Below, one piece after another: positions 7,013 to 22,288 of a stretch of 46,965 nucleotides of DNA. A model generated the notes under the pieces. The model worked only from the letters and a program-made list of their open reading frames with translations. It made no database searches and was not told where the DNA came from. Source of the DNA: Corallococcus carmarthensis (GTDB lineage: Bacteria; Myxococcota; Myxococcia; Myxococcales; Myxococcaceae); assembly GCF_003611695.1 (NCBI RefSeq), contig NZ_RAWE01000059.1, positions 1 to 46,965 of the forward strand. Direction: 5' to 3'. A program made the position numbers and the translations under genes. Position 1 is the first letter of the stretch. Every line of letters starts with the position of its first letter.

Positions 7013-7747
7013 ATGACCCAGCCTGTTCCTCCGCCGTCCGCTGACGCGGCGCCGCTCCAGTTCGACCGCGCCGAGTTCACCGAAGCGCCTCCGGTGACGA
7101 AGTGCACCGTCTGCCAGCGCGCCATCCAGAGCGTCTACTTCGAGGTGAACCAGCGCCTGCTGTGTCCCGACTGCCGCGAGCAGGTGGAGGCGGCGATGAC
7201 GGGCGGCTCGAAGTCGAAGCGCTTCCTGACGGCGTCGGTGTTTGGCTTTGGCGCGGCCGTGGCGGGGGCGCTCGTCTATTGGGTGGTGAGCCTGACGGGC
7301 TACAACATCGGCCTCATCGCCATCGTGGTGGGGTGGATGGTGGGGACCGCGGTGTTCAAGGGTTCCGAGTCGCGCGGTGGCGGGGTCTACCAGGCGCTCG
7401 CGGTGCTGCTGACGTACTTCGCGGTGGCGGGCTCGCTCGCGCCGGATGTGTACAAGGAGCTCACGACGCAGCCTCCGGCCGAGGTGGCGGCCGGCACGCC
7501 GGCGGAGGAAGCGGTGGAGCCCTCCGCCGCGGGCAACGTGGTGCTCGCGGGAGTGATTTCCGTGGCGGCGCCGGTGCTCGTTGGAATCAACAGCCCCATG
7601 TCGGGGCTCATCTACGGCTTCGCGCTGTTCGAGGCGTGGCGCCGCACGAAGCGGACGGCGCTGAACATCGCGGGGCCGTTCAAGCTGCAGGAGGCACCCG
7701 CCGAGGGTGAGGCCGCGCCCGCGGAGCCGGAGCGGTCCGTTGGCTGA
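7013..7747 (+). CDS. zinc-ribbon integral membrane protein
   Basis: 244 aa starting at the ATG of MTQPVPPPSA. A cytoplasmic zinc ribbon is formed by Cys31/Cys34 (CTVC) and Cys51/Cys54 (CPDC). Hydrophobic segments follow at about 71-94, 97-115, 126-143 and 174-206, so it is probably a four-pass inner-membrane protein. The C-terminus is Ala/Glu/Pro-rich. It overlaps the next gene (M50 protease) by 8 nt and opens the operon running to 13914. The protease also begins with a zinc ribbon, suggesting that the two act together. No specific family recognised. Confidence 0.8.
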   Translation: MTQPVPPPSADAAPLQFDRAEFTEAPPVTKCTVCQRAIQSVYFEVNQRLLCPDCREQVEAAMTGGSKSKRFLTASVFGFGAAVAGALVYWVVSLTGYNIGLIAIVVGWMVGTAVFKGSESRGGGVYQALAVLLTYFAVAGSLAPDVYKELTTQPPAEVAAGTPAEEAVEPSAAGNVVLAGVISVAAPVLVGINSPMSGLIYGFALFEAWRRTKRTALNIAGPFKLQEAPAEGEAAPAEPERSVG

Positions 7748-8810
7748 GGCGCTCGCGGTTCAGCTCCTCACGCAGCGGTGTGAGGGGTGTGGTTCGGAGC
7801 TCGCGCCCCGGCTGCTCACCTGTCCGTCGTGCCGGAAGCTGGTGCATGGGAAGCGGCTGACGCAGCTGGCGGCGGATGCGCAGGCGGCGTCGGAGCGGGG
7901 CGCGCCGTTGGAGGCGCTGGCACTGTGGCGCGAGGCTTTGGAGTTGTTGCCACCGGGCACTGCGCAGCACTCGCAGGTGACGGCGCGGGTGACGGCGCTG
8001 AGTCAGCAGGCGGATGCGCACGGGCTGGCGGTGCCGCTGGCGGAGGCGGAGCGCAAGCGTTCGGGAATGCCGAAGGTGTTGGCCAGCATGGGCGCGGTGG
8101 GCCTGATGCTGTGGAAGTTCAAGTTCGTGCTGGCGCTGCTCTTGGGCAAGGGGAAGTTGCTGCTGCTCGGGCTCACGAAGGCGAGCACGCTGTTCTCCAT
8201 GCTGTTCGCGGTGAGCGTGTACTGGACGATGTGGGGTTGGAGCTTCGCGCTGGGGTTGGTGGCGTGCATCTACGTGCATGAGATGGGGCACGTGGCGTCG
8301 CTGCGCCGTCTGGGCATGAAGGCGGACGCGCCCATGTTCATCCCGGGGTTGGGCGCGTTCGTGCGCCTGAAGCAGGTGCCGGTGGATGAGCGCGAGGACG
8401 CGCGCATCGGATTGGCGGGGCCCATCTGGGGCACCGCGGCGGTGGTGGTGGTGCTGGTGGCGGCGGTGCTCACGGGATGGAAGGCATTGGGAGCCATCGC
8501 GCACGCGGCGACGTGGCTGAACCTGTTCAACCTGGTGCCGGTGTGGCAGCTGGACGGCTCGCGAGGCTTCCGGGCGCTGGCGCGCAAGCAGCGGTGGATG
8601 GCGGTGGCCGTGCTGGGCGCGACGTGGTTCCTCACGGGAGAGAACCTGCTCCTGCTCATCGGAGGAGTGGCGGCGTACCGCGCCCTGCTCACACCCGCGT
8701 CGGAGAAGGGCGACCTGCGCACGCTGGTGGAGTACAGCGCGCTGGTGGTGGGATTGGGCGCGCTGGGCTGGGCCGCGCAGCACTGGACGGGGGCGACGGC
8801 GGCGCTGTGA
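7740..8810 (+). CDS. site-2 protease family (M50) metallopeptidase
   Basis: 356 aa if it starts at the TTG at 7740, which overlaps the previous stop and has GGAG upstream; a start at 7707 is also possible. Order: zinc ribbon (Cys14/17, Cys28/31), a short TPR-like helical stretch (about 40-95), then a multi-pass membrane core. The intramembrane zinc site is intact: His180-Glu181-x-x-His184 in YVHEMGHVASL, and the distal NLVPVWQLDGSRGF motif typical of M50 enzymes. Such proteases cut substrates within the membrane and often release regulators in envelope signalling. It is coupled downstream (GTGA overlap) to a membrane-spanning kinase and an ECF sigma factor. I infer a regulated-proteolysis role in that pathway; the substrate is unknown. 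Confidence 0.9.
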   Translation: MAEALAVQLLTQRCEGCGSELAPRLLTCPSCRKLVHGKRLTQLAADAQAASERGAPLEALALWREALELLPPGTAQHSQVTARVTALSQQADAHGLAVPLAEAERKRSGMPKVLASMGAVGLMLWKFKFVLALLLGKGKLLLLGLTKASTLFSMLFAVSVYWTMWGWSFALGLVACIYVHEMGHVASLRRLGMKADAPMFIPGLGAFVRLKQVPVDEREDARIGLAGPIWGTAAVVVVLVAAVLTGWKALGAIAHAATWLNLFNLVPVWQLDGSRGFRALARKQRWMAVAVLGATWFLTGENLLLLIGGVAAYRALLTPASEKGDLRTLVEYSALVVGLGALGWAAQHWTGATAAL

Positions 8811-11800
8811 ACGCACCTGAAGCGCCCATTCAGGTGGGTCCTTACCGGCTGGGCCGTCTGCTGGGGAGCGGCGGCATGGGGCAGGTTTTCGCGGCTGTTC
8901 GCGAGGAAACCGGGCAGGAGGTGGCCCTCAAGCTCCTGTCCCCTGAGTCCGCGGAGGATCCCCAGCTTGTCGCGCGCTTCCTTCAGGAAGCGCAGGCTCT
9001 GGCACAACTCGACCATCCTGGAGTGGTGCGTGTCCTCGACAGCGGGCGGACTGGCACCACCGCGTTCCTCGCCATGGAGCTGCTCCAGGGGCAGTCCCTG
9101 CGCGAATGGATGAAAGACGCCAGGGGCGACTTCCATGGGGCCCTGGCGCTGTGCCGTCAGCTTGCGAGCATCATGGTGGACGTCCACGCACGCGGCATCG
9201 TCCACCGCGACCTGAAGCCGGAGAACATCTTCCTCTGCCCGGATGGCGCGAAGGCCACGGGCCTGAGGGTGAAGCTGCTGGACTTCGGCATCGCCAAGCT
9301 GCCATTCCGGGACACGGGCCCCTTGGACCCGACCCATGTCCATACGCACGAGTCGACCCTCATCGGCACGTATGCGTACATGGCGCCCGAACAGTTTCGC
9401 AGCGCCGCGACCGTCGGGCCGCGCGCGGATGTGTACTCGCTGGGGGTGGTGCTCTTCGAACTGCTCGCGGGCCGCACGCCCTTCGCTTCCGCCGAGCCCA
9501 TCGAGTTGCTGACCGCGCATGCGCAGGAGGAACCTCCCGCCTTGCGGCAATGCGCTCCGGATGTGCCCGGGGCGCTGTCCGCGTTCGTGGCCACCCTTCT
9601 CGCCAAGGCGGCGGAGGTCCGGCCCACCATGGCGCGGTGCCAGCAGGTACTGGCTCGGCCCTGGACGCCTGAACCCGAGGTCTGCCCCATCCCGGGACTC
9701 GCCCCCTTCACCGAGTCCCAGGCCGCGCTCTTCTACGGCCGTGACGCGGAAGTGGCCGCATTGCTGGGGCTCCTGGAAGAAGCACGCGTGGGGGCTCGAC
9801 GCTGGGTTCAGGTGGAAGGCCCCAGTGGCGGAGGAAAGTCCTCGTTGATCCATGCGGGGCTGCTGCCCCGGCTGAGGACGTTGGATGCCCGAGAGGGCGC
9901 CCGATGGCGCATCGCGACGGTGCGCCCGTCGGCCAACCCTTGGGAGGGGCTGGCCCAGGCGCTCGCGACGGCCTTTGCCTCCGAGCAGGAGGATGTGTCG
10001 AAGGACGTCCTGCTTCGCATGCTGCGAGCGGGCCCCGTCGCGCTGCGGGACCTCGTCTTGGAGAAGACGCCCCCTGGCTTCCTCTTGCTGCTGGTCCTTG
10101 AGCCCCTGGAGGAACTGCTCACGCTCGACGCGGCGGACCGTCAGGCTTTCGATGTGTTGTTGGCCGAGTCCCTGCGGGGACGCGAGGTGCCACTGCGCCT
10201 GCTCACGGCGGTGCGCGGGGATTTCCTGCACCGCGTGGAACATCAGCTGCCCGCGCTGGCCCGGAGCCTTCCCGAAGCCGTGCGCTATCCATTGCCATCC
10301 ATGAGCGAGCTTGGCCTCGTGCAGGTCGTCCACGGCCTGTCACGCCACGCGGGGCTCCAGTTGGAAGGGCCGTTGGCCTCGCGGATGGTGGATGACGCCC
10401 GGGATGAAGACGGACGCCTGCCGCTGCTGGGGCATGCCCTGCGGGGACTGTGGGGGCTGCACGCGGAAGGCCCCCTGACGCTCGCGCACTATGACCGGAT
10501 GGGAGGCGTGGGCGGGGCGCTGTCCCGGCAGGCGGAGGGCTTGCTGGACGCCTTGGGACGGGAGGGGCGTGAACGGGCGAAGTGGCTTCTCCTCGACCTG
10601 GTGCAGGTGGGTCGGGGCGTGCCCGACAGTCGGCGCCCGCGTTCACGCCAGGAGGTGCTCGACGCCGCGGGGGGAGATGGGTTGGCGGAAGAAGTCCTGG
10701 CGCGCCTGTCGGGGACCTTCCCTGGCATGGAGCCAGGGCCCCGGCTCATCATGCTCTCGGGCGATCCCGAACCTTCGCGGCAGCGGGTGGATCTGGCGCA
10801 TGAGACGCTGTTGCAGCAGGTGCCCTCACTCGTGGGCTGGTTGGACCACGAGCGAACGCTGCTGGAGCGGCAGGCGGAGCTGGAGACCGCCGCGAGCGCC
10901 TGGGAGCAGGCCCAGCATCCGGAAGACGGGCTGCCCACGGGAGCGCTGCGGCTGCACTACCAGGGCGGGACGGATGCATTGGCGGAAGGCAGTCCCCAGG
11001 CAAGGAGGCTGAGTCGCCGCGCGGTGCGGTTCCTGGAAGCTGCACGAAGACTGGAGCAGCGACATGCGCGAACACAATGGATGTGGCGGTCCTTCGCGGT
11101 ACTGGCCAGCCTCCTCATCCTCATGTCCGCGGTGCGTTCGGAGCAGCAGCGTCAGCGAGCAGAGGCGAGCCTGCGCAGCTTCGTCCTGTCCACGGATGGT
11201 TTCGTGGACCAGGTGGACTGGAGCCTGAGCTGGCTGCCCTTCACCCTGGAGCCCCGCGAGAAGATGCTCCAGCGCTACCAGGAGCTGATCTCCTCGCTCT
11301 CCGACTCCGAACGTGAGCAGTCTGCGGTCCGCCTCACCCGGATCAAGCTCTTCCACCGGCTGGGGGACATGGCCTACATCGATGCGCGCCTGTCGGACTC
11401 GGAGGACGCACTGGCCAAGGCCCTGGCGGAGCTGCGCGCCGGGCAGGCCCTCCACCCGGAAGACAACGGCTTGCGGATGCAGAAGGGGCTCAACGACTCG
11501 AAGCGGGCCAAGGTGGCCTGGGCGCGGGGCCGCTGGGAGGAGGCGCGAGGTCTCCTGGAGGAGTCGCTCGAGCTGCTGAAGCACTCCGACACGGGGACGG
11601 ACCCGGAGGACACCCGTCGCAGTCTGGCGGTGAGCCTGACGGAGATAGGAGACCTGGAACTCGCGAACCAGCGGCTGGAGGCCGCCGTCAGCCGATATGG
11701 GGAAGCCATCGAGCTTCACGCGCAGAACCCTGGGACCTACAACAGCGCTCTTCTTGCCGAGACGCTGGCCGTCCGAGGAGCGGCCCTCCGGATGGAAGGC

Positions 11801-12217
11801 GATTTTGTCCGGTCGCGGGTAGACCTGGAACGGGCTCTGCGCTTGGCACGTGACTGCGTCCAAGCCGATAGGGGAAGGCAGTACTTTCAGTGGGTGCTGA
11901 CCCGAAGCCTAGTGGCGCTCGCCATGCTCGACACCGAAGAGGGGCACTCCGAACCCGCGCGGGATCGTTACGAAGAGGCCATCACGTTGGGTCAACAACT
12001 CCGGCAGGGGGAAATGCCCAGCAAGCGCCTCGCACTGGTCCTGCTGCAAGCCCTGTCGGGGTATGAGACCTGGGCGCGAACGCAGGGGCAGTCACCGCTG
12101 GAGCAGAAGCTCCGGCAGGAGCGCTGCGGTCTGGCGAGGGAGTTCCAGGAGAAGGACCCCGAGGACCTGAGGTTCCAGGCTGCAGGCTGTACCGGAGCGA
12201 TGCAAGGGGACGAATGA
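8807..12217 (+). CDS. Ser/Thr protein kinase with nSTAND1 NTPase and TPR sensor domain
   Basis: 1136 aa from a GTG start overlapping the protease stop. The N-terminal Hanks-type kinase (about 13-285) is complete: glycine loop LLGSGGMGQVF, Lys42, HRDLKPEN at 133-140, DFGIAK from 159, and the MAPEQ activation segment. A second module (about 295-740) opens with PFTESQAALFYGRDAEV and a Walker A GPSGGGKSS at 338-346, the layout of nSTAND1 NTPases. One transmembrane helix (about 760-777) separates this from an exported region with TPR-like helical repeats (about 850-1100). Its stop overlaps the next gene, an ECF sigma factor (ATGA). Kinase-STAND-TPR proteins are common in myxobacteria. I infer that it senses a ligand through the TPR part and signals to the coupled sigma factor. 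Confidence 0.9.
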   Translation: MNAPEAPIQVGPYRLGRLLGSGGMGQVFAAVREETGQEVALKLLSPESAEDPQLVARFLQEAQALAQLDHPGVVRVLDSGRTGTTAFLAMELLQGQSLREWMKDARGDFHGALALCRQLASIMVDVHARGIVHRDLKPENIFLCPDGAKATGLRVKLLDFGIAKLPFRDTGPLDPTHVHTHESTLIGTYAYMAPEQFRSAATVGPRADVYSLGVVLFELLAGRTPFASAEPIELLTAHAQEEPPALRQCAPDVPGALSAFVATLLAKAAEVRPTMARCQQVLARPWTPEPEVCPIPGLAPFTESQAALFYGRDAEVAALLGLLEEARVGARRWVQVEGPSGGGKSSLIHAGLLPRLRTLDAREGARWRIATVRPSANPWEGLAQALATAFASEQEDVSKDVLLRMLRAGPVALRDLVLEKTPPGFLLLLVLEPLEELLTLDAADRQAFDVLLAESLRGREVPLRLLTAVRGDFLHRVEHQLPALARSLPEAVRYPLPSMSELGLVQVVHGLSRHAGLQLEGPLASRMVDDARDEDGRLPLLGHALRGLWGLHAEGPLTLAHYDRMGGVGGALSRQAEGLLDALGREGRERAKWLLLDLVQVGRGVPDSRRPRSRQEVLDAAGGDGLAEEVLARLSGTFPGMEPGPRLIMLSGDPEPSRQRVDLAHETLLQQVPSLVGWLDHERTLLERQAELETAASAWEQAQHPEDGLPTGALRLHYQGGTDALAEGSPQARRLSRRAVRFLEAARRLEQRHARTQWMWRSFAVLASLLILMSAVRSEQQRQRAEASLRSFVLSTDGFVDQVDWSLSWLPFTLEPREKMLQRYQELISSLSDSEREQSAVRLTRIKLFHRLGDMAYIDARLSDSEDALAKALAELRAGQALHPEDNGLRMQKGLNDSKRAKVAWARGRWEEARGLLEESLELLKHSDTGTDPEDTRRSLAVSLTEIGDLELANQRLEAAVSRYGEAIELHAQNPGTYNSALLAETLAVRGAALRMEGDFVRSRVDLERALRLARDCVQADRGRQYFQWVLTRSLVALAMLDTEEGHSEPARDRYEEAITLGQQLRQGEMPSKRLALVLLQALSGYETWARTQGQSPLEQKLRQERCGLAREFQEKDPEDLRFQAAGCTGAMQGDE

Positions 12218-13026
12218 TTCCGGAACCGCAGGAGCCGTTGTCGACGCTGCCCACCTCCGAGCTGATCCGCCGGGCACGTGATGGCCAGCGCGATGCCTTG
12301 GAGGAGTTGCTGCGCCGCTACCAGGCGGTCCTGCGGAAGTGGGCACGAGGGGTCATCAAGTCGGACGCTCCTGGTGGGGCACGTCCCTCCGACGTGGCGC
12401 AGGATGCTTCACTGGCGGCCTTCCGGCACTTCCTGTCATTCAAGGGAGCGAGCCAGTCGGAATGGACATCGTGGCTTCGGAAGGTTGTGACCTCCAAGGC
12501 GAAGATGAGCCTTCGTCGTGCCCAGGGGGCAGAGCGGAACTCGTCGGGCAACGTTCCTCTGTACTCCCTGGACGAGACGCAGGAGGTGGCCTCACCCCGG
12601 AAGAGCCCGAGTCAGGTCACCGCCCATCGGGAGGAGTGGCGCCGGCTGTTGGTGCATTTCCACGGCCTGCCTGCGGACCAGCAGGAGGCACTGACCTTGC
12701 GACGCTTGAAGGAGTTGTCGGCGGCGGAGGTCGCAGAGCGGATGCACCGGAGCGAAGCCGCCGTGGATTCGCTGGTCCAGCGTGCGACCCGAACGCTTCG
12801 CGATCGCTTGGTAGGGGTGGAAGCGAAAGCCGTCACGCCAGAAGCCCGCAGGATCCGCAACATGGCGGACGCGGTCCTGGCCGAATATCTGCGCCGACGT
12901 GAATCCGGGGAGCGCGTCACCCTGGAGGAGGTCATCCGGGAGCATCCGGATTGCGCCGAGGAACTGCGGGGGTTGCTGCACGGAATGGAGCAGCTGAAGG
13001 TGCTCTGGCCCGGTGACCCTGCCTGA
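12214..13026 (+). CDS. ECF sigma factor with C-terminal extension
   Basis: 270 aa. Region 2 lies at about 12-85 (LIRRARDGQRDALEELLRRY; DVAQDASLAAFRHF) and region 4 at about 145-200 (LPADQQEALTLRRLKELSAA, EVAERMHRSEAAVDSLVQRA). Beyond region 4 is an extension of about 55 residues, TLEEVIREHPDCAEELRGLL, the ERPTLEEYxxxHPEL-type motif often linked with Ser/Thr kinases in planctomycetes and myxobacteria. It sits between two kinase genes: ATGA overlap upstream, 18 nt downstream. I infer phosphorylation-controlled activity, since no anti-sigma gene is beside it. Lower GC than dnaN suggests less constrained or acquired DNA. Confidence 0.88.
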   Translation: MIPEPQEPLSTLPTSELIRRARDGQRDALEELLRRYQAVLRKWARGVIKSDAPGGARPSDVAQDASLAAFRHFLSFKGASQSEWTSWLRKVVTSKAKMSLRRAQGAERNSSGNVPLYSLDETQEVASPRKSPSQVTAHREEWRRLLVHFHGLPADQQEALTLRRLKELSAAEVAERMHRSEAAVDSLVQRATRTLRDRLVGVEAKAVTPEARRIRNMADAVLAEYLRRRESGERVTLEEVIREHPDCAEELRGLLHGMEQLKVLWPGDPA

Positions 13027-13044: not shown

Positions 13045-13914
13045 ATGCTGCCATCGGGAACCCAGGTGGATGCCTATGTTCTGGAGCGCAGGGTCGCACT
13101 GGGCGCCACGAGTGAGGTGTACGCGGCTCGGCACCCAGTGCGGCATGAAGCAGTGGCCGTGAAGGTGCTGAGCACCCGATGGTGCGGTCATCCCGAGGTC
13201 GTCGCGCGCTTCCTCAATGAAGCCCAATCCCTGTTGGAGTTGCGCCATCCGCATCTGGTGCGGGCAATGGCATCGGGTGTCCTTCCGAATGGTCAGCAGC
13301 CCTTCCTGGTCCTGGAGTGGCTGCCCCTGGACCTGCACCAGTGGCTCCCGTTGGTCGGCGGTCGTCTCTCCGCAGAAGATAGCGCGCGAATCGTCGGACA
13401 GCTGGCGTCGGTCCTGGCCATGTTGCATGCGCGGGGACTGATCCATCGCGACTTGAAACCAGCGAACATCCTGATGGTCCGTGACGGAGCATCCGCGCCA
13501 GAGGTGAAGCTGGCGGACCTGGGCCTGGCGAAGCATGGGGAGACGGCTCGTCCCATGGCCCGGCATGTTTCGACGGCGGGAAGCGCCGTGCTGGGGACCT
13601 GGGACTACATGGCTCCGGAGCAGTGGACGCACTCCAAGCAAGTCGGGGTCGAAGTGGACATCTACGCCCTGGGCATCCTCTGGTTCCAACTGCTCGTGGG
13701 ACGGCTTCCGTTTCAAGGGGATGACGAGCAGTCGTTGATGGTCCGGCACGTCATGCAGCTACCTCCCCTGGTGCTGCTGGAGGGGCTTGCGCCTGATGCG
13801 CAGCGGACGTTCCTGGGACGGATGCTGGACAAGGTGGCTTCGAAACGCCCTTCGCTAATGGAGCTCCAGGCACTCCTGGCCAGCTCAGGGGCATTTCCGA
13901 GGGAGGCCGGCTAG
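13045..13914 (+). CDS. Ser/Thr protein kinase, stand-alone catalytic domain
   Basis: 289 aa, consisting of little more than a kinase domain. VAVKVL provides the ATP-binding Lys40, HRDLKPAN lies at 134-141, and DLG (158-160) replaces the usual DFG. The glycine loop is degenerate: VALGATSEVYAA keeps only one of the usual glycines, so ATP binding may be altered, although the catalytic HRD and metal-binding Asp remain. The activation segment contains GTWDYMAPEQW. No transmembrane segment, so it is a soluble partner of the upstream ECF sigma factor and membrane kinase. The ATG follows AGTAGGAACGC, and a hairpin terminator 35 nt after the stop closes the operon. Confidence 0.9.
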   Translation: MLPSGTQVDAYVLERRVALGATSEVYAARHPVRHEAVAVKVLSTRWCGHPEVVARFLNEAQSLLELRHPHLVRAMASGVLPNGQQPFLVLEWLPLDLHQWLPLVGGRLSAEDSARIVGQLASVLAMLHARGLIHRDLKPANILMVRDGASAPEVKLADLGLAKHGETARPMARHVSTAGSAVLGTWDYMAPEQWTHSKQVGVEVDIYALGILWFQLLVGRLPFQGDDEQSLMVRHVMQLPPLVLLEGLAPDAQRTFLGRMLDKVASKRPSLMELQALLASSGAFPREAG

Positions 13915-13948: not shown

Positions 13949-13976
13949 AGCCCCGCGATGGGTTTCGGGGGCTTTT
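13949..13976 (+). terminator. terminator between kinase operon and CBASS locus
   Basis: AGCCCC pairs with GGGGCT around a 13-nt loop and is followed by TTT (13974-13976). Its position after the kinase stop and before the first CD-NTase marks the CBASS genes as a separate transcription unit. Confidence 0.55.
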
Positions 13977-14017
13977 CGCATCCTCTTTTCCTGAAGGTGG
14001 AAAGCGAGGAGCCGTGC

Positions 14018-14908
14018 ATGTGGAGCGTGCGTCATGCCGTTGAGCAGTTCATCCAGTCCCTGGAGCTGACCCCTGGCCAGCGCGAGGCCTGCAACGAAAA
14101 GCAGACCCGCCTGAGAGAGGCGCTGCAGGGGGGGCTGGGGGCCCAGACCACCTTCCTCTCCGGTTCCTACGGCCGAAACACCGCCATCCGGCCGCTGCAC
14201 GATATCGACATCTTCGTGGTGCTGCGGGAGATCTCTCTCGCTCCGCATGGAAGCGGGAAACCGCTGGAGGAGTCCCAGCATGAGCTGCTCCTGCGGGTTC
14301 ATGGGGTGCTTCGCAAGGAGTGGACGAACAAGGAGCCTCCGCACATCCAGCGGCGCTCGATCAACATCGAGTTCTCCGGAAAGGGCCTCGACTTCGACGT
14401 CGTGCCCGCCTTCAAGCTTTCGGGGCGGGACGCCTTCCTCATCCCCGAGCGGGGAACGAACCGCTGGATCCAGACCAATCCTCGGCTGCATGCGGAGCGA
14501 TGCAGGGAGGCGGACCGGGTCGCGGGGCACATGCTCAACCCCCTCATCAAGACGGTGAAGCACTGGAACCGGGAGCAGCAGTCCAGCCCGTTGCGTTCCT
14601 TTCACCTCGAAGCGATGAGCTACGGCGCCTTCCGTGCGCCGCCCGCCAACGGCGGCAAACTGGAGACGCTCAAGACCCTCTTCGAGCACCTGACCGCGAG
14701 CGTCCAGCGACCCTGCCCGGATCCCGCGCACCTTGGCGAGCACGTGGATGCCAACATGAGCGTGACCCAGCGTGTGGCCGCACAGCAGGTGCTGAACAGT
14801 GCGGCGGTGGAGCTGGGGCACGTGCTGCGGGAGGAGCCGTCCGATCCAGCCATGGCACACCGCCGGCTGCGAAGGCTTTTTGGCAACGCGTACCGAGACC
14901 ACGGCTGA
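14018..14908 (+). CDS. CBASS CD-NTase (cGAS/DncV-like nucleotidyltransferase) A
   Basis: 296 aa from the ATG at 14018, which has GAGGAG 7 nt upstream; an earlier in-frame ATG at 13958 lies inside the terminator. The active site is intact: Gly49-Ser50 in LSGSYGRNTAIRPL, metal-binding Asp62 and Asp64 in HDIDIFVVL, and the third Asp127 in DFDVVPAF. The C-terminal helical half (TVKHWNR, SFHLEAM) fits the OAS/CD-NTase partner domain. Such enzymes make cyclic di- or trinucleotides upon phage infection. The chain ends in glycine (YRDHG), as expected for a Cap2 conjugation target. First gene of the island; 35 nt before a SAVED protein. Clade and product cannot be told from sequence alone. Confidence 0.92.
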   Translation: MWSVRHAVEQFIQSLELTPGQREACNEKQTRLREALQGGLGAQTTFLSGSYGRNTAIRPLHDIDIFVVLREISLAPHGSGKPLEESQHELLLRVHGVLRKEWTNKEPPHIQRRSINIEFSGKGLDFDVVPAFKLSGRDAFLIPERGTNRWIQTNPRLHAERCREADRVAGHMLNPLIKTVKHWNREQQSSPLRSFHLEAMSYGAFRAPPANGGKLETLKTLFEHLTASVQRPCPDPAHLGEHVDANMSVTQRVAAQQVLNSAAVELGHVLREEPSDPAMAHRRLRRLFGNAYRDHG

Positions 14909-14943: not shown

Positions 14944-16746
14944 ATGAACATTCCCATCGACAAGAAAACGAATGCCCTCCTGCTGCGTTACGAGCACGAC
15001 CGTGCGGTCATTGAGCCGGCGGCGCGAGCAGCCATCGCCCAAGCGGGCATGGAAGCCCATCAGTACGTCGAAAGCGTGGCTGTTCACGAACGGGACGCGG
15101 ACTGGAACGTGCGCAAGCAGCGCCCCCAGGACTGGGCGGGCGCGTTCGCGGAGAATGACCGCTTCGCCGAAACGCTGACGCGCAAGGAGGGGGAGCTCGG
15201 TGTGAATCACCTGCCTGTCCACCTGTTCCCCCTGGCGCCGTTGATGCTGGGGATGCACCTGGCTTCGCGGCTGGAGCGCCGGCCGCTGTGCGTCTACCAA
15301 CAGAACCCGAATGGAGACTGGTGGTTGGGCTACCAGCGGGACCAGGCGCCCTCGGAGGAGCCCTACTTCGAAATAGATGGGTTGCCGACGGGACCCCAGG
15401 GGGGGCGGGGCCACGTCGCGCTCGTCATCGAGGTGACGCGCTCCATCCGTGAAAAGGCCCTCGCGCAGTTCAAGGAGCGGCATCCCGCGGCATTGCTGGC
15501 CACTGTCGTCTTGCGGCCCTTGCGCGGTATCTCTCCGACAGCGTTCGAGGGCCCGGCACAAGCCGCGAGAGCAGCTCGGCAGTTCCGGCAGGTGCTCGAC
15601 ACGCTCCACGAACATTTGGAGGGGTGCGAGTCAGTGCTGCTGGCGATGGATGGTCCTGGCTCACTTGCCGCCGCGCTGGGCACCGCAATCAACCCGGAGA
15701 CACAGCATCCCCTGCGATTGCATCACTTCGACCAGGGGACGAGCACGTACGTCCCTGTTCATCTCCTGCGCCCGCGTCGCAAGGAGGAGCGACCGGCAGC
15801 GCTCCTGACGCCGGAGTGGATGGCTGAAGCCACCCACGTTCTGGAGAAGGTTCGGGCTGTTCACCAGAAGCTGGTGACGTGGCTAAGGGAAACAGAACAG
15901 GCAGCCCTGGTGGAGCGCATCCAAGGGGCGGATCTTCTCCAGAGTCACATCGGTGTTGCTCCCGAGCTGTCCAGTGGTCCGCTCTATCGGCACGTGAAGG
16001 GCTCTTGGAACTTCCATGCCGACCTGTTGCTCAGGCTGGGCGCCCTGCGCCAACTGCTGGCGTCTGACGAGGACTGGAATGAGTGCGTGCGCCTGCTTCT
16101 GGTCCACGAGGCCTTTCACGTCGGGCAGGGCGGGCTGACCTCCTACAACTACAGTGGGAGCGGGCGCACGGGCTTCGTCTTGGAGGTGGCGGACTTCGAC
16201 GCGGACGAGATGGCCATCGAGGTGGCGCTGGCGTGGCGAAGGGCGAAGCACGGCGACGCCGTCAGGGAGAAGGGGGAAACCCGGACGGTGGAGCAGATCG
16301 TCTGGAACGTGGTGGAGTTCCTGCGCGTCTTCGAGCCGGACCGCCCCGTCATGGAATTGTCCGAGCGCAGGCTGCGGCGCTATCTCATCTGGTTCTTCCA
16401 TGCATGCCGACTCTCCGCGCTCGCCCGAAAGGCAAAGGACGCGCCTGGGCTGGGCCTGGTAACGATAGAGATCGCGGGCCTGCCGACCTTCCCGGATCCC
16501 GATGAGGAGTACGCGCAGCAGCGCATCCGGCTGGACTATTTCGACAAGGACACGCCGGTGGCGGTGGCGGTCTACTTCCGGCGTCGGCTGGTGCGTGAGG
16601 AGAACCACCGGGCATGGGTGGAACGCCTGTTCCAGGTGTTTCGCGACTGGGAGTCGACGCCTCTGGAGAAGGCACGCGATGACATGCGCCTTATCTTCGA
16701 GCAGTTGTTCAACCGCAATCGAGACCTCGTCGCATCCGGCTCGTAG
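14944..16746 (+). CDS. SAVED-domain CBASS effector with putative HExxH zincin domain
   Basis: 600 aa. Residues about 85-275 match a SAVED cyclic-oligonucleotide sensor: NHLPVHLFPLAPLMLGM, RPLCVYQQNPNGDWWLGY, GHVALVIEVT, ESVLLAMDGPGSLAAALG and a terminal TYVPVHLL strand. No nuclease, TIR or transmembrane module is visible. Instead residues about 290-590 hold His388-Glu389-x-x-His392 (LLLVHEAFHVGQGG) and, 25-32 residues on, DFDADEMAIEVAL, the spacing of HExxH zincins whose third ligand lies in an ExxAD or DE-type helix (M48/M78-like). I infer a ligand-activated metalloprotease effector. The ATG at 14944 lacks a strong ribosome site and may rely on coupling to the CD-NTase. SAVED call strong; the protease call is motif-based. 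Confidence 0.82.
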   Translation: MNIPIDKKTNALLLRYEHDRAVIEPAARAAIAQAGMEAHQYVESVAVHERDADWNVRKQRPQDWAGAFAENDRFAETLTRKEGELGVNHLPVHLFPLAPLMLGMHLASRLERRPLCVYQQNPNGDWWLGYQRDQAPSEEPYFEIDGLPTGPQGGRGHVALVIEVTRSIREKALAQFKERHPAALLATVVLRPLRGISPTAFEGPAQAARAARQFRQVLDTLHEHLEGCESVLLAMDGPGSLAAALGTAINPETQHPLRLHHFDQGTSTYVPVHLLRPRRKEERPAALLTPEWMAEATHVLEKVRAVHQKLVTWLRETEQAALVERIQGADLLQSHIGVAPELSSGPLYRHVKGSWNFHADLLLRLGALRQLLASDEDWNECVRLLLVHEAFHVGQGGLTSYNYSGSGRTGFVLEVADFDADEMAIEVALAWRRAKHGDAVREKGETRTVEQIVWNVVEFLRVFEPDRPVMELSERRLRRYLIWFFHACRLSALARKAKDAPGLGLVTIEIAGLPTFPDPDEEYAQQRIRLDYFDKDTPVAVAVYFRRRLVREENHRAWVERLFQVFRDWESTPLEKARDDMRLIFEQLFNRNRDLVASGS

Positions 16747-16757: not shown

Positions 16758-17943
16758 ATGGGCGAACAGAGCGCATCCCGAATGGAAGGCGACCGCTACC
16801 AGCACCTCTACAGCTGGTACGTGCTGCTGCCGTTGCTTGACGGGGACAGTCCCTTCGAGACGGTCCTCGTCGAGCATCCGGAAGCGGGCGCGGCGGATGA
16901 CGTCACGCTGCATCCTTGTCCCGGTGCAAACGTGGCCCGCCAGTATGTGCAGGTGAAGTGGCACGTGGACCACCGTGCGCTCTACACGCTGGAGGGCCTG
17001 ACAGAGGGGGTTGGCCGCGGACAGTCGCTGCTCCAGAAACTCTTCGCGGCCTGGAGGATGTTGCGCGGAGAAGGGCCCGTGGAGCTGTGGCTGGTGAGCA
17101 ACTGGCCCGCGGATCCGGAGCTGGGTCGATACCTCGCAGCTGGACCGGGCGAAGCTCCAGCTGTTCATCCGGGACCGGGGGCTCCTGGAGCCGAAGAGCG
17201 ACACGCCGGGCGTGGGGCTATGGATCCACGGATGGTCCCGACGTCAGTGGCGCGAGCCACCGGCGGTGGAACTGGACTGGACGTCGCACTTCGACCGGGA
17301 CACCCGAGCGGTGCCGACGGAAACGGTCTGGCGCGAGCGGCTGCTTCCCGAACTACGCGAGGCGCGGCAGAGGCTGGCGTCCCGGCCTGCGGAGACAGTG
17401 ATCGACTTCCGGGGCAAGGTACTGCTGTCGGTCCCGCTGGCCGTGGGTGCCTGTTTCCCAGAGGTGGCGGGCGACCGTTTCCGGGTGGAGCAATCAACGC
17501 GGGGCGAGACAGTGCTGTGGCGCTCGGATGCGAAGCCAACGTGGCGGCGGCTCCAAGGCACCGAGCACGAAAGCGCTCCGGATGCGAAGGACCTGCTGGT
17601 GGTGTTCCAGCTCACAGGCGACGCGGGTCCGGACGTCGAACAGTTCCTGGCCGGTCATCCGCAGCGGTTCCGTGCGGTTCTCGTGCTGGAGCCAGAAGGT
17701 GGGCCCCACGACGGCGCAGTGGGCTCGGACGGGGACGCGGTCGCCTCCGCGGTACTCGCGCGCGAACGCATCCGCCAGGCCCGCGTGCGGTGGCGCACCG
17801 CCACCACGCACCTCATCCCCTACGCCCCGGCGGGCTGCTGCCTCTTCCTGGGCCAGCGCCTCAACGCGATGGGGGCGGTGGTGGCCTACGAGCGCACCGC
17901 CGCGGGCGGCTACGTCCCCTTCCTGACCGTGGAGACAGGGTGA
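16758..17943 (+). pseudogene. Cap4-like nuclease-SAVED effector, interrupted by +1 frameshift
   Basis: The first frame (from ATG 16758) encodes a Cap4/DUF4297-like PD-(D/E)XK nuclease: GDRYQHLYSWYVLLPLL, Glu39, AADDV with Asp48, and QVKW with Gln65/Lys67, then WRMLRGEGPVELWLVSNWP. At about 17123-17130 the reading moves to the +1 frame (TSQLDRAKLQLFIRDRGLL), which continues as a SAVED domain (DAKDLLVVFQLTGDAG, TTHLIPYAPAGCCLFLG, GGYVPFLT) to the stop at 17943. Removing one G from GGG at 17123-17125 would restore a 394-aa Cap4-sized protein. It sits 11 nt after the SAVED-zincin gene and 84 nt before CD-NTase B. It could be a true mutation, an indel error, or, less likely, recoding. Confidence 0.8.
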
Positions 17944-18027: not shown

Positions 18028-18987
18028 ATGCAGGTTCGACAAGCAGTTCATGACTTCATTTCCGCGCTTGAACTCACCCCTGCCGAGAGGGAGGCGGCCA
18101 GTGACCAGCACAAATTCCTGCGAGATGGACTGGCCAGCCGACTCAAGATTGAGCCTGACCTCTACCCATTCCTTACTGGCTCCTATGCGCGGAGCACGGC
18201 CATCCGCCCGCTCAAGGACATTGACTTGTTCTGCGTGCTGCAACGCACGCCCGTGCTCACCCCGGCCAGCAGCAAGCCGATGGACGCACTGGCGACGGTG
18301 CGACGAGCGCTTGAAGACCAATACCCGGGCAAGACCGCCGACCCCCAGAATCGCTCGGTGAACATCTCATTCTCCACCACCGGGATTGCCTACGACGTCG
18401 TCCCCGCGTTCCTCGACGAGGACAACAGCGAGGTCTTCTGGATCCCTGACCTCCAGGCGAAGACGTGGATCCGTTCCAATCCACGTATCCACGAACGCTT
18501 GTCGGTGGACGCCAACAAGGCCGCAGGCCAGGAACTCAAGCCTCTCACCAAGGCGGTGAAGCACTGGAACCGGCGGCAACCGGAAGGGGAGCGGCTGAGG
18601 TCGTTCCACATCGAGGTGATGATCTGGGATGTGCTCGTCGCGAAGCCAGAGGACCGGCTGGAGGGCCTCATCGAAATCTTCGAGGGCCTGGCTTCTCGCG
18701 TGCTTCTCGACACGCGGGACCCGGCGGCGTTGGGGCCATACATCAATCAGGGCATGACCGACGCGGCGAAAACCGCCGCGAGGACACGGTTGGGACGCGC
18801 AGCCTCGACGCTGAGAGCGGCGAGGGAACTCGCGCAGGCTGGCCATACGGAGCGGGCCCATCATCTCCTGTACGGGATGTTTGGGGATCCCTACCCGGAG
18901 AAAGGAAGGCAGGAGCGCCCGGTCGTCACGGGCGTTTCGGCATCCTTGCCGTCCGCCCCGGATGGTCATGGCTCCAGGTTCGGGTAG
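18028..18987 (+). CDS. CBASS CD-NTase B
   Basis: 319 aa from an ATG with AGGAG about 8 nt upstream. Clearly related to CD-NTase A (both have FI-x-x-LELTP near the start). Active site: Gly51-Ser52 in LTGSYARSTAIRPL, Asp64 and Asp66 in KDIDLFCVL, and third Asp123 in AYDVVPAFL. VKHWNRRQ and SFHIEVM match the C-terminal core of its paralogue. Beyond the fold is a tail of about 30 residues, longer than in A, ending HGSRFG with a C-terminal glycine suited to Cap2-type conjugation. Its TAG stop is in the same frame as the following E2-E1 gene, whose TTG start comes 6 nt later. Likely makes the signal for the neighbouring SAVED effector(s). Confidence 0.92.
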   Translation: MQVRQAVHDFISALELTPAEREAASDQHKFLRDGLASRLKIEPDLYPFLTGSYARSTAIRPLKDIDLFCVLQRTPVLTPASSKPMDALATVRRALEDQYPGKTADPQNRSVNISFSTTGIAYDVVPAFLDEDNSEVFWIPDLQAKTWIRSNPRIHERLSVDANKAAGQELKPLTKAVKHWNRRQPEGERLRSFHIEVMIWDVLVAKPEDRLEGLIEIFEGLASRVLLDTRDPAALGPYINQGMTDAAKTAARTRLGRAASTLRAARELAQAGHTERAHHLLYGMFGDPYPEKGRQERPVVTGVSASLPSAPDGHGSRFG

Positions 18988-18993
18988 ACGCCA

Positions 18994-20745
18994 TTGCCAT
19001 TCCCTGACCGTGGCCGACGGCGGTGGTTGAAGGAATTGTATGTCCTTCGCCAACGGCACCCTCACATCTTGCGGATTGAGGAGCATCCGGTGCCCTTCGT
19101 TGAAGGCATGGTCGATACCGCGGGCGGACCTCGGCGATATCGGCTCGCATGGCCTCCGGAGTTCCCCTTGAGACCGCCTGTCACCTGGGAGTTGTCGGCC
19201 GATGGCGCGAACATCATCGATCATCGCGACCATGGGTACACGTTCCCAGATCTGAGTTTGTGCTTGTTCGCGCATGACCCTCAGCGAGGATGGCGACCCG
19301 AGTTCACCGCTGGAGAGGCGCTTGATCGGCTCGTCTCGTATCTGGAGCAGGAGGCTCGAGGCGAATTTCCTCGAATCGAGGACATCCCCCTGACGACACA
19401 TGCCATCCGGGTCTCCTTGCCGCTGAGCATCTCGGAGGCCCTACGTCAGGGAGGGAGTTGGGGCATGTTGACGGCGCTTGTCCGGAAGGACGGGCGACTC
19501 CTGCGCGTGATGAGCGTGGATGGAACCTCACGCTCTCCAATCATCACCAGCCCTCTTGAGGCCGGTTTGGGGGCGTCGTGGATCGCCGCGCTGGGGTTGA
19601 ACCATCCGCGGAACGGCTTGTGGTGCCGGATCAACATGAGCGTGGAGCAGGTCCCTTCGTTGCGGAGGGACCTCGATGGCTGGATTCGACAGCAGCTCCC
19701 GCACGAACCCGCACGACAGTTGTTCATGGAGCAGGGATTGATCCTGCTGGTGTTGAACGATGGGTTTCGAATCGTCATGAGGGCTAGAGCCTCTTCGGAC
19801 ACGCGCCCTGACGAGAGACTGCTCTATGTAAAGCCTGTCGAGGAGAACCTTGAAGAACGTATTTTCCGGCGCGTTGAGGAGCGCCTGGCTGGAGGCAGGG
19901 GACTCCGGCGAGCGCAGGTCGCGATCGTCGGGGTCGGCAGCCTCGGCGGCAGTGTCGCGGTCGCACTTGCCAAGGCCGGCGTCGGGAGGTTCGTGCTCCT
20001 CGACCCGGAACTCCTTGACCCTGAGAACGTGGCACGACACGTGGGCGGCGTAGACGCGCTCTGTTTGCCCAAGGTGGAAGTCGTGAGCAGGGCGATTCAT
20101 CGCATCAACCCCGCTGCGGAAGTGGTCCCGGTACAAGCGGCGCTCTCGTTGGATCCGGTCGGCTGGGGAAGGGATACGACGCAGCACCTCATCCAGGTGA
20201 CACACAATCCATTGGGCATCGTCGTCTGCGCCACCGCCACGACCGAGGCGGAGAGCGTGGTCAACCATCTGTGCGTGACCGGCGCATGCCCTGGGATCTT
20301 CGCCGCCGTACTGGGGCGTGCGGAGCATGGGCGGGTATTCAGGGTCCTGCCGCGGTTGACGCCCTGCTATCAGTGTGTGCTGAACGCTCAACACGCGGAG
20401 CCTGGTCGATTTCCGCGCTTCGACCGCGCTGACATGGGTGTTCCCGCCTATCAGCAACCAGGACTCCCCGGGCTTGGGCTGGACGTTGAGCAGGTCGCGC
20501 TGCTCACCGCGCGGATGACATTGCAGACGCTCGGGGAGCGGATCGAGGGTGGGCTCGACTACCCGAAGGCCCATGGGGATCACCTGCTCTGGTCCAATCA
20601 CGGAGGGTGGGCCGTCGACGGTCCGCTCCAGGCGCGGGTGGAGCGTATTCCTCGGGACCGCGAATGCCCCGTATGTGGGGATGGAGATGAAAGCCCTCTG
20701 GCCTTGGAGGAGGAGGAAGAATTGGCTGCCCTGCAAGTGGTCTGA
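18994..20745 (+). CDS. cap2: E2-E1 fusion conjugating enzyme (CBASS Cap2-like)
   Basis: 583 aa from TTG 18994, the first possible start after the CD-NTase B stop; other in-frame TTG codons follow at 19027 and 19036. The N-terminal E2-like domain (about 10-125) has PPEFPLRPPVTWEL and a candidate catalytic Cys90 in DLSLCLF. After a linker domain (about 130-300) comes an E1/ThiF adenylation domain: Rossmann GVGSLGG from 313, LLDPELLDPENVARHVGG, and paired zinc cysteines CYQC (458-461) and CPVC (558-561). Cap2 attaches the CD-NTase C-terminus to targets and boosts second-messenger synthesis in type II CBASS. No JAB-type Cap3 follows. Visibly lower GC than dnaN or recF, consistent with transfer. 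Confidence 0.88.
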   Translation: MPFPDRGRRRWLKELYVLRQRHPHILRIEEHPVPFVEGMVDTAGGPRRYRLAWPPEFPLRPPVTWELSADGANIIDHRDHGYTFPDLSLCLFAHDPQRGWRPEFTAGEALDRLVSYLEQEARGEFPRIEDIPLTTHAIRVSLPLSISEALRQGGSWGMLTALVRKDGRLLRVMSVDGTSRSPIITSPLEAGLGASWIAALGLNHPRNGLWCRINMSVEQVPSLRRDLDGWIRQQLPHEPARQLFMEQGLILLVLNDGFRIVMRARASSDTRPDERLLYVKPVEENLEERIFRRVEERLAGGRGLRRAQVAIVGVGSLGGSVAVALAKAGVGRFVLLDPELLDPENVARHVGGVDALCLPKVEVVSRAIHRINPAAEVVPVQAALSLDPVGWGRDTTQHLIQVTHNPLGIVVCATATTEAESVVNHLCVTGACPGIFAAVLGRAEHGRVFRVLPRLTPCYQCVLNAQHAEPGRFPRFDRADMGVPAYQQPGLPGLGLDVEQVALLTARMTLQTLGERIEGGLDYPKAHGDHLLWSNHGGWAVDGPLQARVERIPRDRECPVCGDGDESPLALEEEEELAALQVV

Positions 20746-20875: not shown

Positions 20876-22288
20876 ATGAGCGGAAGGTGGTGCGTGGCGC
20901 TGTGTCTTCTGTCATGGGCGTGGCCTGCCCGGGTGGTCGCACAGGAACAGTCGCCAGATGCGACCGCCAGCGAGCCTGCCTCCATCTTTCGTAACGCCTC
21001 TCCGCCTACGAACAGGACTCGCCACCTGCGGGCCATGGACCTGGAACCGCCCACGGCCGTGGAGGACTGGCACTTCCTGACCCGGTTCGACGTGTCGACC
21101 CTGGCCCTGCTTCCTCGCGGCGACGGTGGAGCACGCGAGGGGTTCGTCCAGGTCGCTCCCACGCTGATGCTGGATGGTGGCGCGGAATTCGGCGTCAACC
21201 TGGGTGCTCCGGTGAGGCTGCGCCTGTGGGGCGGCGGGCGGAGCGCGGGTGTCATTCGCCGGGAGGACTGGGACAGCCTGTCGGACTGGGGGCAGGTGGT
21301 TCGAGCCCTCAAACTGGGGTCGAACGAGGCGCCTCTGGCGCTATGGCTGGGAGCGCTGGAGCGCTACAGCCTGCTGTCCGGGCACTTGGTGCGGCGCTAC
21401 TCCAACCGCGTCAACCCGGACTATCACCCGGCGGGAGGCTTCCTCACCGGGACGATTGGCCCCGTCTACGTGGAGGCCTTCGCCTCGGACATCCTTGGCG
21501 CGCGGCTCTTCGGCGCGGAAGCCGAGGTGGATCTGGAGTACGTCCTCTTCGGCCCGCCAGCGCAAGCCGGACGGTACTCGCTGGCCGTGTCCGCCGTGCA
21601 TGAGGGGGGCAAGGGGGAGGGAACCTCGTCCGAGAGCACCCTGACCCATCTGGACGGGACCGCAGTGGTGTGGACTCGCCCGGGCTTGGAACTGCACCTG
21701 CTGGCCGGCTGGGGTGGCCGTCCCAGAACGAGTGGCGCCTGGGGCGTGGTGGCTGGGGTGGGCGCGGACGCGGAGACACCGGGGTTGAACGCTCGGCTGC
21801 GCCTGGAGGCGCGGCGGCAACACGGAGGCTTTCGCCAAGGTGCCTTCGGCCCGGACTACGAACTGGCGCGCTTTCGCGCGGTGGGCGCTTCAGGCCAGTC
21901 CCTGGCGGAGGCCTCCTTTCCGGAGGGATCTTCCCTCTACGCCGAAGTGGACGTGGGCTGGGACGCGGAGCGTTTGGTGGGAAGGGTCCAGCGGCACCTG
22001 GCCTTCTCCTGCTCGCTGGAGGTCTTCAGCTGGGGCCGCGTGGATACGGATGGACGGCTCGCCCTCCAGTTATTCGAGCGCAACCTGGAACTCGCCACGA
22101 GCGTGCTGGCAATGGGCCTGGGGCGGCCGGGGGCCCGCTACCTCGTGTCGGGGGACCTGCGCTGGCGCTTCGCGGGCAGGATGTACGCGCTGGGGCAAGG
22201 AGGGACGCTGTTGTTCCCGGAGGCGGACGGAGCGCTGCGTCCGGGCATCTATGCCTCGCTGGGCGTGGGGGTGGACAATGCGCGCTGA
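20876..22288 (+). CDS. outer-membrane beta-barrel-like exported protein
   Basis: 470 aa. Signal peptide at residues 1-23 (MSGRWCVALCLLSWAWPARV, cleaved near VAQ). The mature protein has repeated amphipathic beta strands ending in aromatic residues or Arg/Leu, such as VRLRLWGGGRSAGV, RLRLEARRQHGGF and GDLRWRFAGRMYAL, and closes with LRPGIYASLGVGVDNAR. This is the pattern of an outer-membrane beta-barrel, though no named family is evident. GAGGGG precedes the ATG. Its end overlaps the next lipoprotein gene by 11 nt, so the two are coupled, and a small acidic protein follows. In a toxin/immunity reading it would be an accessory envelope component; that role is inferred from position only. Confidence 0.75.
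   Translation: MSGRWCVALCLLSWAWPARVVAQEQSPDATASEPASIFRNASPPTNRTRHLRAMDLEPPTAVEDWHFLTRFDVSTLALLPRGDGGAREGFVQVAPTLMLDGGAEFGVNLGAPVRLRLWGGGRSAGVIRREDWDSLSDWGQVVRALKLGSNEAPLALWLGALERYSLLSGHLVRRYSNRVNPDYHPAGGFLTGTIGPVYVEAFASDILGARLFGAEAEVDLEYVLFGPPAQAGRYSLAVSAVHEGGKGEGTSSESTLTHLDGTAVVWTRPGLELHLLAGWGGRPRTSGAWGVVAGVGADAETPGLNARLRLEARRQHGGFRQGAFGPDYELARFRAVGASGQSLAEASFPEGSSLYAEVDVGWDAERLVGRVQRHLAFSCSLEVFSWGRVDTDGRLALQLFERNLELATSVLAMGLGRPGARYLVSGDLRWRFAGRMYALGQGGTLLFPEADGALRPGIYASLGVGVDNAR

What the first reader, a model, noticed from the sequence alone, without database searches (positions are those of the whole stretch)
18994..20745. Cap2-like E2-E1 without a Cap3 (JAB) protease nearby
Seen: a full E2 (candidate Cys90) and E1 (GVGSLGG, zinc cysteines) but no JAMM motif gene from 14018 to 24121. 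Known: type II CBASS normally pairs Cap2 with the deconjugase Cap3. The zincin in the SAVED protein is the only peptidase-like domain in the island and could, speculatively, take over a deconjugating role.
Basis: inference. Interest (0 to 1): 0.68.

Follow-up and report, generated by a model that had tools for sequence, protein, structure and literature searches.

The report
Cap3-less cyclase-Cap2 pair in myxobacteria
A myxobacterial anti-phage island carries a signalling enzyme with its own ubiquitin-like attaching enzyme but without the usual detaching protease; relatives carry the same two-gene pair in differently built defence islands, so the missing protease looks like a real variant and the neighbouring metalloprotease is probably an ordinary effector rather than its replacement.

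Summary
18994-20745 encodes an intact E2-E1 (Cap2-like) protein, and no JAB/JAMM gene was found in the whole window. That is uncommon, not unique: of 10 other cyclase-Cap2 loci read in Myxococcota, 8 have a JAB beside Cap2. The two without are a second, unrelated Cap3-less pair (G081, G043). All 8 long plasmid matches listed have one, two with broken frames.

This Cap2 belongs to the adjacent second cyclase (CDN2), whose tail ends ...GHGSRFG in all four copies known here. CDN2-Cap2 recurs at 81-92% identity in three other myxobacteria, behind different modules. Three of the four loci have no linked JAB, and in the complete genome G047 no Cap3 was found. In C. exercitus a JAB stands before Cap4, but it is left over from an older operon whose own cyclase and Cap2 are mostly deleted. 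Both cassette genes are under purifying selection.

The idea that the SAVED-zincin replaces Cap3 is not supported: in 22 of 22 other SAVED-zincin loci opened, neither Cap2 nor JAB was found, so it is most likely an effector. The window's genome has one Cap3 in another CBASS, so action in trans stays open. New variant of a known kind.

The parts
18994..20745 (+). Cap2-like E2-E1 fusion (583 aa): E2 Cys90 (codon 19261-19263), E1 nucleotide loop GVGSLG, zinc Cys 458/461/558/561; no Cys between 461 and 558 (V483 in the column of the canonical loop Cys)
18028..18987 (+). CDN2, CD-NTase with an extended tail ending ...GVSASLPSAPDGHGSRFG; ends 6 nt before Cap2; predicted Cap2 substrate
18925..18984 (+). 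codons of the last 20 residues of CDN2: the last 18 residues are identical in 4 of 4 genomes with several silent changes
16758..17943 (+). broken Cap4-like PDDEXK-SAVED gene in two frames; 284 nt missing at 17126|17127 relative to C. exercitus
14944..16746 (+). SAVED-zincin (600 aa; PADLOC SAVED_peptidaseM48, 583 bits); HExxH at 388-392; most likely an effector
13958..14908 (+). CDN1, CD-NTase of the kinase/sigma-linked module, no extended tail
13045..13914 (+). Ser/Thr protein kinase of the CDN1/SAVED-zincin module
12214..13026 (+). sigma factor (region 4 over its Pfam cut-off) of the same module
8809..12217 (+). large kinase of the same module (kinase match 8831-9655; start approximate)
7731..8807 (+). 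upstream flank gene, 94.7% identical in G057: same chromosomal site
20876..22285 (+). downstream flank gene, 84.5% identical in C. exercitus and 83.4% in G057: same site

Best explanation
18028-20745 is a two-gene cassette, cyclase CDN2 plus its own E2-E1 conjugase Cap2, that works without a dedicated Cap3. Cap2 is predicted to adenylate the C-terminal glycine of CDN2, pass it to E2 Cys90 and join it to an acceptor, which primes CDN2. Its messenger would then act on whatever SAVED effector the host island supplies: here the SAVED-zincin, because Cap4 is broken. The cassette stands behind a kinase/sigma-linked CBASS module (CDN1-SAVED-zincin) that elsewhere does without conjugation. The JAB that precedes this Cap4 type in relatives is absent here, so priming is one-way or is reversed only by Cap3 from the separate CBASS on contig C344. 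Shown by sequence: gene content, tails, selection, recurrence, absence of JAB. Inferred: conjugation, its direction, messenger sharing, zincin as effector.
For: CDN2 and full-length Cap2 are found at over 80% identity in the same four genomes, side by side. dN/dS is 0.20-0.29 for Cap2 and 0.17-0.23 for CDN2 over 6 pairs each. CDN2 ends in Gly in 4 of 4; over all Cap2-linked Myxococcota cyclases read, 13 of 14 end in Gly/Ala, against 1 of 15 CDN1 in Cap2-free loci. Jenson 2023 (PMC10097602, passages) gives C-terminal Gly/Ala as the mark of cyclases in operons with Cap2 and Cap3. No linked JAB in 3 of 4 loci; no Cap3 found in complete genome G047. The C. exercitus JAB sits where G062 and G067 have CDN*-Cap2*-JAB-Cap4, with CDN* and most of Cap2* missing. 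A second, unrelated cyclase-E2-E1 pair without JAB exists in G081 and G043. Cap3 was dispensable or partly so in several tested systems (PMC11153139, passages).
Against: Only four loci of this pair were found, all in one family. Three of the four genomes hold a Cap3-type JAB somewhere, so function in trans is not excluded. The E1 half lacks the Cys that canonical Cap2 proteins have between the zinc pairs, so full activity is unproven. Cap4 is broken in the window, so part of the island is decaying, and in G057 the same site holds only scraps of cap2. CDN1 also ends in Gly, though without the tail. One Cap2-linked cyclase (L179) ends in Glu.
Confidence: 0.55

Rival explanations
1. Cap3 acts in trans: the JAB of the complete type II CBASS on contig C344 of the same genome removes CDN2 conjugates.
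For: C344 carries patatin-like effector (by eye), cyclase, Cap2 and JAB. G074 and C. exercitus also have a Cap3-type JAB. The CDN2 tail (SRFG) resembles the tails (GRFA in three of four) of the cyclases that go with the C. exercitus-type JAB.
Against: In G047, one contig, none was found (150 of 158 candidates scored). The C344 cyclase tail (SSSSA) is unlike SRFG.
Confidence: 0.22
2. The window locus is a decaying patchwork: Cap2 and CDN2 are leftovers that no longer do anything.
For: Cap4 broken by one 284-nt gap; cassette in scraps in G057; mixed modules at one site.
Against: CDN1, SAVED-zincin, CDN2 and Cap2 are all open full length, and Cap2 evolves at much the same dN/dS between window and C. 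exercitus (0.20) as in the other pairs (0.21-0.29).
Confidence: 0.14
3. The SAVED-zincin has taken over Cap3's deconjugating role.
For: It is the only intact protease-like gene seen in the island. Over the four loci, the three without JAB have a SAVED-zincin and the one with JAB has none.
Against: In 22 of 22 other SAVED-zincin loci opened no Cap2 and no JAB was found. The second Cap3-less pair showed no SAVED-zincin in L126 and L128 by eye. CDN1-type cyclases beside it mostly lack a Gly/Ala end. It carries a SAVED sensor domain like effectors. The two zincins concerned are only 27% identical.
Confidence: 0.05

Closest known systems
Type II CBASS (CD-NTase, Cap2, Cap3, effector)
   Same: cyclase directly before an E2-E1 Cap2; cyclase tail ending in Gly; SAVED effectors in the island
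   Different: no Cap3 gene linked; the other cyclase and the intact effector belong to another module; E1 lacks the loop Cys
Type II short CBASS (named in passages of PMC11153139; that it is E2-only and without Cap3 is recalled)
   Same: conjugation machinery without a Cap3 (recalled)
   Different: here a complete E1 half is fused to the E2
Second Cap3-less pair of G081 and G043 (L126, L128; found here)
   Same: cyclase ending in Ala directly before an E2-E1 protein, no JAB found in the locus or, as Cap3 type, in the genome
   Different: cyclase of another PADLOC model (PDLC00803), E1 without zinc CxxC pairs but with a Cys in the late loop
Myxobacterial kinase/sigma-CDN1-SAVED-zincin operon (15 CDN1-linked loci found here)
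   Same: left half of the island, same order
   Different: no CDN2 and no Cap2 found in those loci
CBASS on an Arthrobacter plasmid with split E2 and E1 (L175)
   Same: E1 without Cys between the zinc pairs, cyclase tail ending in Gly, SAVED effector
   Different: E2 (by eye) and E1 are separate genes and a JAB is present

Membership tests
Type II CBASS | CD-NTase encoded next to Cap2 | tested here: met
   CDN2 18028-18987 ends 6 nt before Cap2; SMODS 74 bits
Type II CBASS | Cap2 with E2 and E1 parts | tested here: met
   ThiF 96 bits; E2 by alignment only, Cys90 invariant in 8 rows
Type II CBASS | cyclase C-terminus Gly or Ala | tested here: met
   Gly in 4 of 4 CDN2
Type II CBASS | Cap3 (JAB) gene in the operon | tested here: not met
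   none found in the window; linked JAB in 1 of 4 CDN2-Cap2 loci
Type II CBASS | own effector gene | tested here: inconclusive
   Cap4 broken; intact SAVED-zincin belongs to the CDN1 module
Type II CBASS | covalent conjugation of the cyclase | not testable with these tools
   needs co-expression and mass spectrometry
Canonical Cap2 E1 | Cys between the two zinc CxxC pairs | tested here: not met
   absent in 4 of 4 cassette proteins; present in E. coli TW11681, C344, L129 and L132, and after the only CxxC of L121
SAVED-zincin effector (PADLOC SAVED_peptidaseM48) | profile match over most of the protein and HExxH | tested here: met
   583 bits over 62-597; HExxH in 22 of 23 ORFs found, the one without being the C. 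exercitus SAVED piece, and in L120
Cap3 substitute | occurs only, or mainly, with Cap2 systems | tested here: not met
   no Cap2 and no JAB found in 22 of 22 opened SAVED-zincin loci other than the three with the pair

The most novel reading that the evidence does not exclude
A plug-in module for one-way conjugation: a cyclase with a glycine tail and an E2-E1 lacking the E1 loop cysteine, which hands the cyclase adenylate straight to the E2 cysteine. It is maintained without any deconjugase and lends conjugation-based priming to CBASS islands that otherwise run without it, feeding their SAVED effectors with a shared messenger.
Probability: 0.25. Interest if true: 0.65.

Novelty: new variant of a known kind. 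Interest (0 to 1): 0.45.

Why it matters
What Cap3 is for is unsettled: it was needed, partly needed or dispensable depending on system and phage (PMC11153139, passages). A natural Cap2 that persists without a linked Cap3, in G047 without any Cap3 found in the genome, gives a system in which conjugation can be studied without its reversal. It also shows a cyclase and its conjugase travelling as a unit among different effector modules, and an E1 half without the usual loop cysteine.

Tried and rejected
Zincin as Cap3 substitute: rejected on its Cap2-free homes. CDN1 as Cap2's substrate: rejected because it lacks the extended tail, although it does end in Gly, and its relatives end variably. Loss of the E1 loop Cys as the reason for the missing JAB: rejected, because the Bradyrhizobium and Arthrobacter E1 proteins without it have a JAB in the locus. 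CDN2 as a recent copy of CDN1: not supported; CDN2 is its own clade and the deeper forks are open.

Mended on checking: I had first left L126 and L128 out of the Cap2 count because tblastn with four cyclases found no cyclase beside the E1 gene (L128 had only a weak cyclase match elsewhere). One search showed a cyclase-like gene directly before each, searches confirmed it (PADLOC cyclase 58 and 72 bits, Pfam DZF near its cut-off), and neither has a JAB; the count is therefore 8 of 10, not 8 of 8. Two weaker SAVED-zincin loci were opened late.

Failed or thin: structure prediction of Cap2 (mean pLDDT 29, two sequences), so no fold search was run. The genome-contig scan found only C. exercitus. 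The window Cap2 against plasmids gave 6 weak E1 matches, none covering 80%; four were opened, two not. The SAVED-zincin against plasmids gave none. PADLOC model PDLC00829 gave 8 of 195 genomes: G139 and seven E1 proteins with a JAB-like part fused in front (by eye). Left out of the Cap2 count: those fused proteins (L122-L125, L127, L130, L133, and L131), L135 (MoeB-like by eye), L032/G139 (no cyclase found by tblastn). Other E1 matches were not opened. In one search nothing rang and that call had no positive control; the same profile did match 3 of 5 genomes.

Full report
What is there. The window is contig C485 of a draft genome of 10.8 Mb in 530 contigs. Its genus is that of G059, whose contig has the length of Corallococcus exercitus NZ_RAVW01000075.1, so the host is a Corallococcus by inference. 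The island reads: upstream flank gene 7731-8807, large kinase, sigma factor 12214-13026, kinase 13045-13914, cyclase CDN1 13958-14908, SAVED-zincin 14944-16746, a broken Cap4-like gene 16758-17943, cyclase CDN2 18028-18987, Cap2 18994-20745, downstream flank gene from 20876. The Cap4-like gene matches the PADLOC model PDLC02007 in two frames (1-127, then 245-485). Against C. exercitus it differs by one gap of 284 nt at 17126|17127, which shifts the frame.

No JAB. A Prok-JAB search of the own genome listed 11 matches at E<=1, none on this contig; four pass the cut-off. They are one beside adenylylsulfate-kinase-like and LarE-like genes, with counterparts in four other genomes (by eye, gene names recalled), two on contig C144 among genes that look like a prophage (by eye), and one on C344. 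C344 holds a complete type II CBASS: patatin-like protein (by eye), cyclase, Cap2 and JAB. A profile from three Cap3-type JABs found nothing in the whole window, ORFs of 50 aa or more.

Is that unusual? In Myxococcota I read ten other loci with a cyclase next to an E2-E1 protein. Eight have a JAB right after Cap2 (L011, L121, L129, L132, L176, L177, L179, L180). Two, L126 (G081) and L128 (G043), have none: a 290-aa cyclase (PADLOC PDLC00803, 58 and 72 bits; ends TLA) overlaps the start of a 613-614-aa protein with a ThiF domain, and no JAB was found in the locus or, as Cap3 type, in either genome (L126 holds only 1.7 kb beyond the gene). So a Cap3-less pair exists at least twice, in unrelated forms. 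On plasmids, a search with E. coli Cap2 matched 168 records, 55 of them over at least 80% of its length; 24 were listed, eight of those long matches. In those eight a JAB is beside Cap2: three from the listing's annotation (H7, H9, H10), three intact on opening (H11, H12, H14), two with a broken frame as deposited (H8, H13). The other 16 listed and 144 unlisted records were not opened.

Relatives of this Cap2. At E<=1e-20, 6 of 145 genomes of the order have a match, its own included. Three are full-length orthologues at 90, 85 and 81% in alignment: G059, G047, G074. G057 keeps only scraps at the same site. G139 matches only in E1 (37%), and no cyclase was found beside it by tblastn. In 195 genomes of the phylum the other matches cover E1 only, at 28-42%. 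CDN2 at over 80% identity occurs in the same four genomes only, each time directly before Cap2. The genome-contig scan returned C. exercitus alone.

What stands around the pair differs. Window: kinase/sigma, CDN1, SAVED-zincin, broken Cap4. G047 and G074: kinase/sigma, another SAVED-zincin (27-29% identical to the window's in the aligned part), another cyclase, no Cap4; in G074 one more cyclase follows Cap2. C. exercitus: a cyclase, a protein with a SAVED domain, sigma, CHAT-like and caspase-like genes (by eye), a 199-aa E1 piece, JAB, intact Cap4. G062 and G067 explain the last: there the same genes run cyclase CDN*, full Cap2*, JAB, Cap4. The C. exercitus JAB is 87 and 71% identical to theirs, its Cap4 90 and 87%, and about 2 kb holding CDN* and most of Cap2* is missing; its E1 piece matches a PADLOC E1-E2 model in two stretches. 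So that JAB is a survivor of an older operon. The window's broken Cap4 is 82-91% identical to the G062 copy, so I infer that the JAB in front of it was lost or replaced in the window's line. Whether the surviving JAB serves CDN2-Cap2 in C. exercitus is open: CDN2 ends SRFG, and CDN* ends GRFA in three of four loci and GRFARE in the fourth.

Cap3 in the four genomes. With a five-row Cap3-type profile, a Cap3-type JAB was found in G000 (C344; plus a weak match on C144), G059 and G074, but not in G047 (150 of 158 first-look candidates scored) or G057. By Prok-JAB, G047 has one match over the cut-off, at the adenylylsulfate-kinase/LarE site, and two below it. G074's copy belongs to a second CBASS with cyclase, Cap2 and JAB (L121). 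So co-occurrence is 3 of 4 genomes with an intact pair.

Which cyclase is the substrate? Jenson 2023 (PMC10097602, passages only) reports a C-terminal Gly or Ala in 1,583 cyclases with Cap2 and Cap3, and no such conservation in other architectures. Here 4 of 4 CDN2 end in Gly, with the last 18 residues identical and silent changes beneath. Of the ten other Cap2-linked Myxococcota cyclases, nine end in Ala and one (L179) in Glu, giving 13 of 14. Of 15 CDN1-type cyclases in Cap2-free loci, 1 ends in Gly (L118) and the rest in Arg, Pro, Tyr or Ser, without an extended tail. The window's CDN1 also ends in Gly but lacks the extended tail. CDN2 is therefore the likely substrate. CDN1, CDN2, the G047 extra cyclase and the C. 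exercitus left-hand cyclase all match the same PADLOC model best (PDLC00823), whereas CDN* (L177) matches PDLC00822. This makes a shared messenger type plausible, not shown. In a tree of 38 cyclases CDN2 and CDN1 are separate well-supported clades and the deeper order is open; the program warned of long branches.

Selection. dN/dS (Nei-Gojobori, own script) is 0.20-0.29 for Cap2 and 0.17-0.23 for CDN2 over six pairs each; recF between the window and C. exercitus is 0.08 and the flank gene 0.29. The pair is thus kept as protein in three genera (g1, g3, g6) in loci without a linked JAB.

The SAVED-zincin. PDLC02018 matches in 35 of 195 genomes. I opened 22 loci beside those of the pair: the 18 strong matches (526 bits or more) that are not in the pair's loci, G080 with two weaker matches, a distant second SAVED-zincin of the own genome on C188, and two weak near-full-length ones, G083 and G073. 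Other partial matches were not opened as zincin loci. A CDN1-type cyclase is next to it in 15, another cyclase in 4, none was found in 3; four also have a Cap4 60-63% identical to that of C. exercitus; none of the 22 has a Cap2/E1 or JAB match. Two of these loci are short (10.5 and 4.4 kb). HExxH is present in 22 of 23 ORFs, the exception being the C. exercitus SAVED piece, which was left out of the alignment. A protease with a SAVED sensor that lives in Cap2-free CBASS is best read as a messenger-triggered effector. Against my reading stands the pattern over the four CDN2-Cap2 loci: zincin present where JAB is absent, and the reverse.

An odd E1. Canonical Cap2 proteins have at least one Cys between the two zinc CxxC pairs: E. 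coli TW11681 Cys513 and Cys525 (Cys513 is the one Jenson 2023 predicts from ThiF to be catalytic), C344 two, L129 two, L132 one; L121 has one after its only CxxC. The four cassette Cap2 proteins have none (window 461-558), nor have E1 proteins of Bradyrhizobium and Arthrobacter plasmids, which score highest among the nine compared with it and do have JAB genes in the locus. So this E1 type does not go with loss of JAB. A direct hand-over from adenylate to E2 Cys90 is my inference.

Literature. Krueger 2024 (PMC11153139: Main section read, passages) reviews that Cap3 was partly needed in B. cereus, essential against some phages in E. coli, and not required in V. cholerae and P. aeruginosa systems. 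PMC12355090 and PMC11354881 were seen as passages only. Ledvina 2023 is not held. In the listings I saw no title or abstract start describing a Cap3-less E2-E1 CBASS or a tested SAVED-zincin (one search returned 0 papers); full texts were not gone through and subscription papers are missing, so this is weak evidence of novelty.

Verdict. Observation confirmed. It works like type II CBASS but fails one defining feature (linked Cap3), so I describe it as a Cap3-less variant and do not file it as a standard member. The zincin-as-Cap3 idea is unlikely; trans-acting Cap3 stays possible in three of the four genomes.

Noticed in passing
L126 5488-8173 (G081), L128 6908-9614 (G043): A second Cap3-less cyclase-E2-E1 pair, unrelated to the window's: cyclase ends TLA, E1 without zinc CxxC pairs, no JAB found in the locus or genome; in L126 a nuclease-like ATPase-type gene precedes it.
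   Followed up: partly
window 16758-17943: Cap4-like nuclease-SAVED gene broken by a single 284-nt gap relative to C. exercitus; the two halves lie in different frames.
   Followed up: yes
L031 9239-9798 (G057): At the same chromosomal site only scraps of a CDN1-like cyclase and of Cap2 remain, between the same flank genes.
   Followed up: partly
L176, L177, L179, L180: Long islands: cyclase, SAVED protein, sigma, CHAT-like, caspase-like, then a complete type II CBASS (cyclase, Cap2, JAB), with Cap4 in L176 and L177: two cyclases in one island.
   Followed up: partly
L107, L109, L110, L114: CDN1-SAVED-zincin-Cap4 islands: one cyclase with two SAVED effectors and no Cap2 found.
   Followed up: no
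L120 8785-10993 (own genome, contig C188); also L197, L198: Distant SAVED-zincins next to another type of cyclase, without Cap2 or JAB; in L197 and L198 with sigma and kinase genes.
   Followed up: partly
L030 6083-7048 (G074): A third cyclase on the other side of Cap2 in G074.
   Followed up: no
L122-L125, L127, L130, L131, L133: E1 proteins with a JAB-like part fused at the N-terminus in one family of the order (by eye), no cyclase found nearby by tblastn.
   Followed up: no
window 22299-24121: Lipoprotein-like ORF followed by a small ORF overlapping its end, downstream of the island; no NCBIfam match.
   Followed up: no
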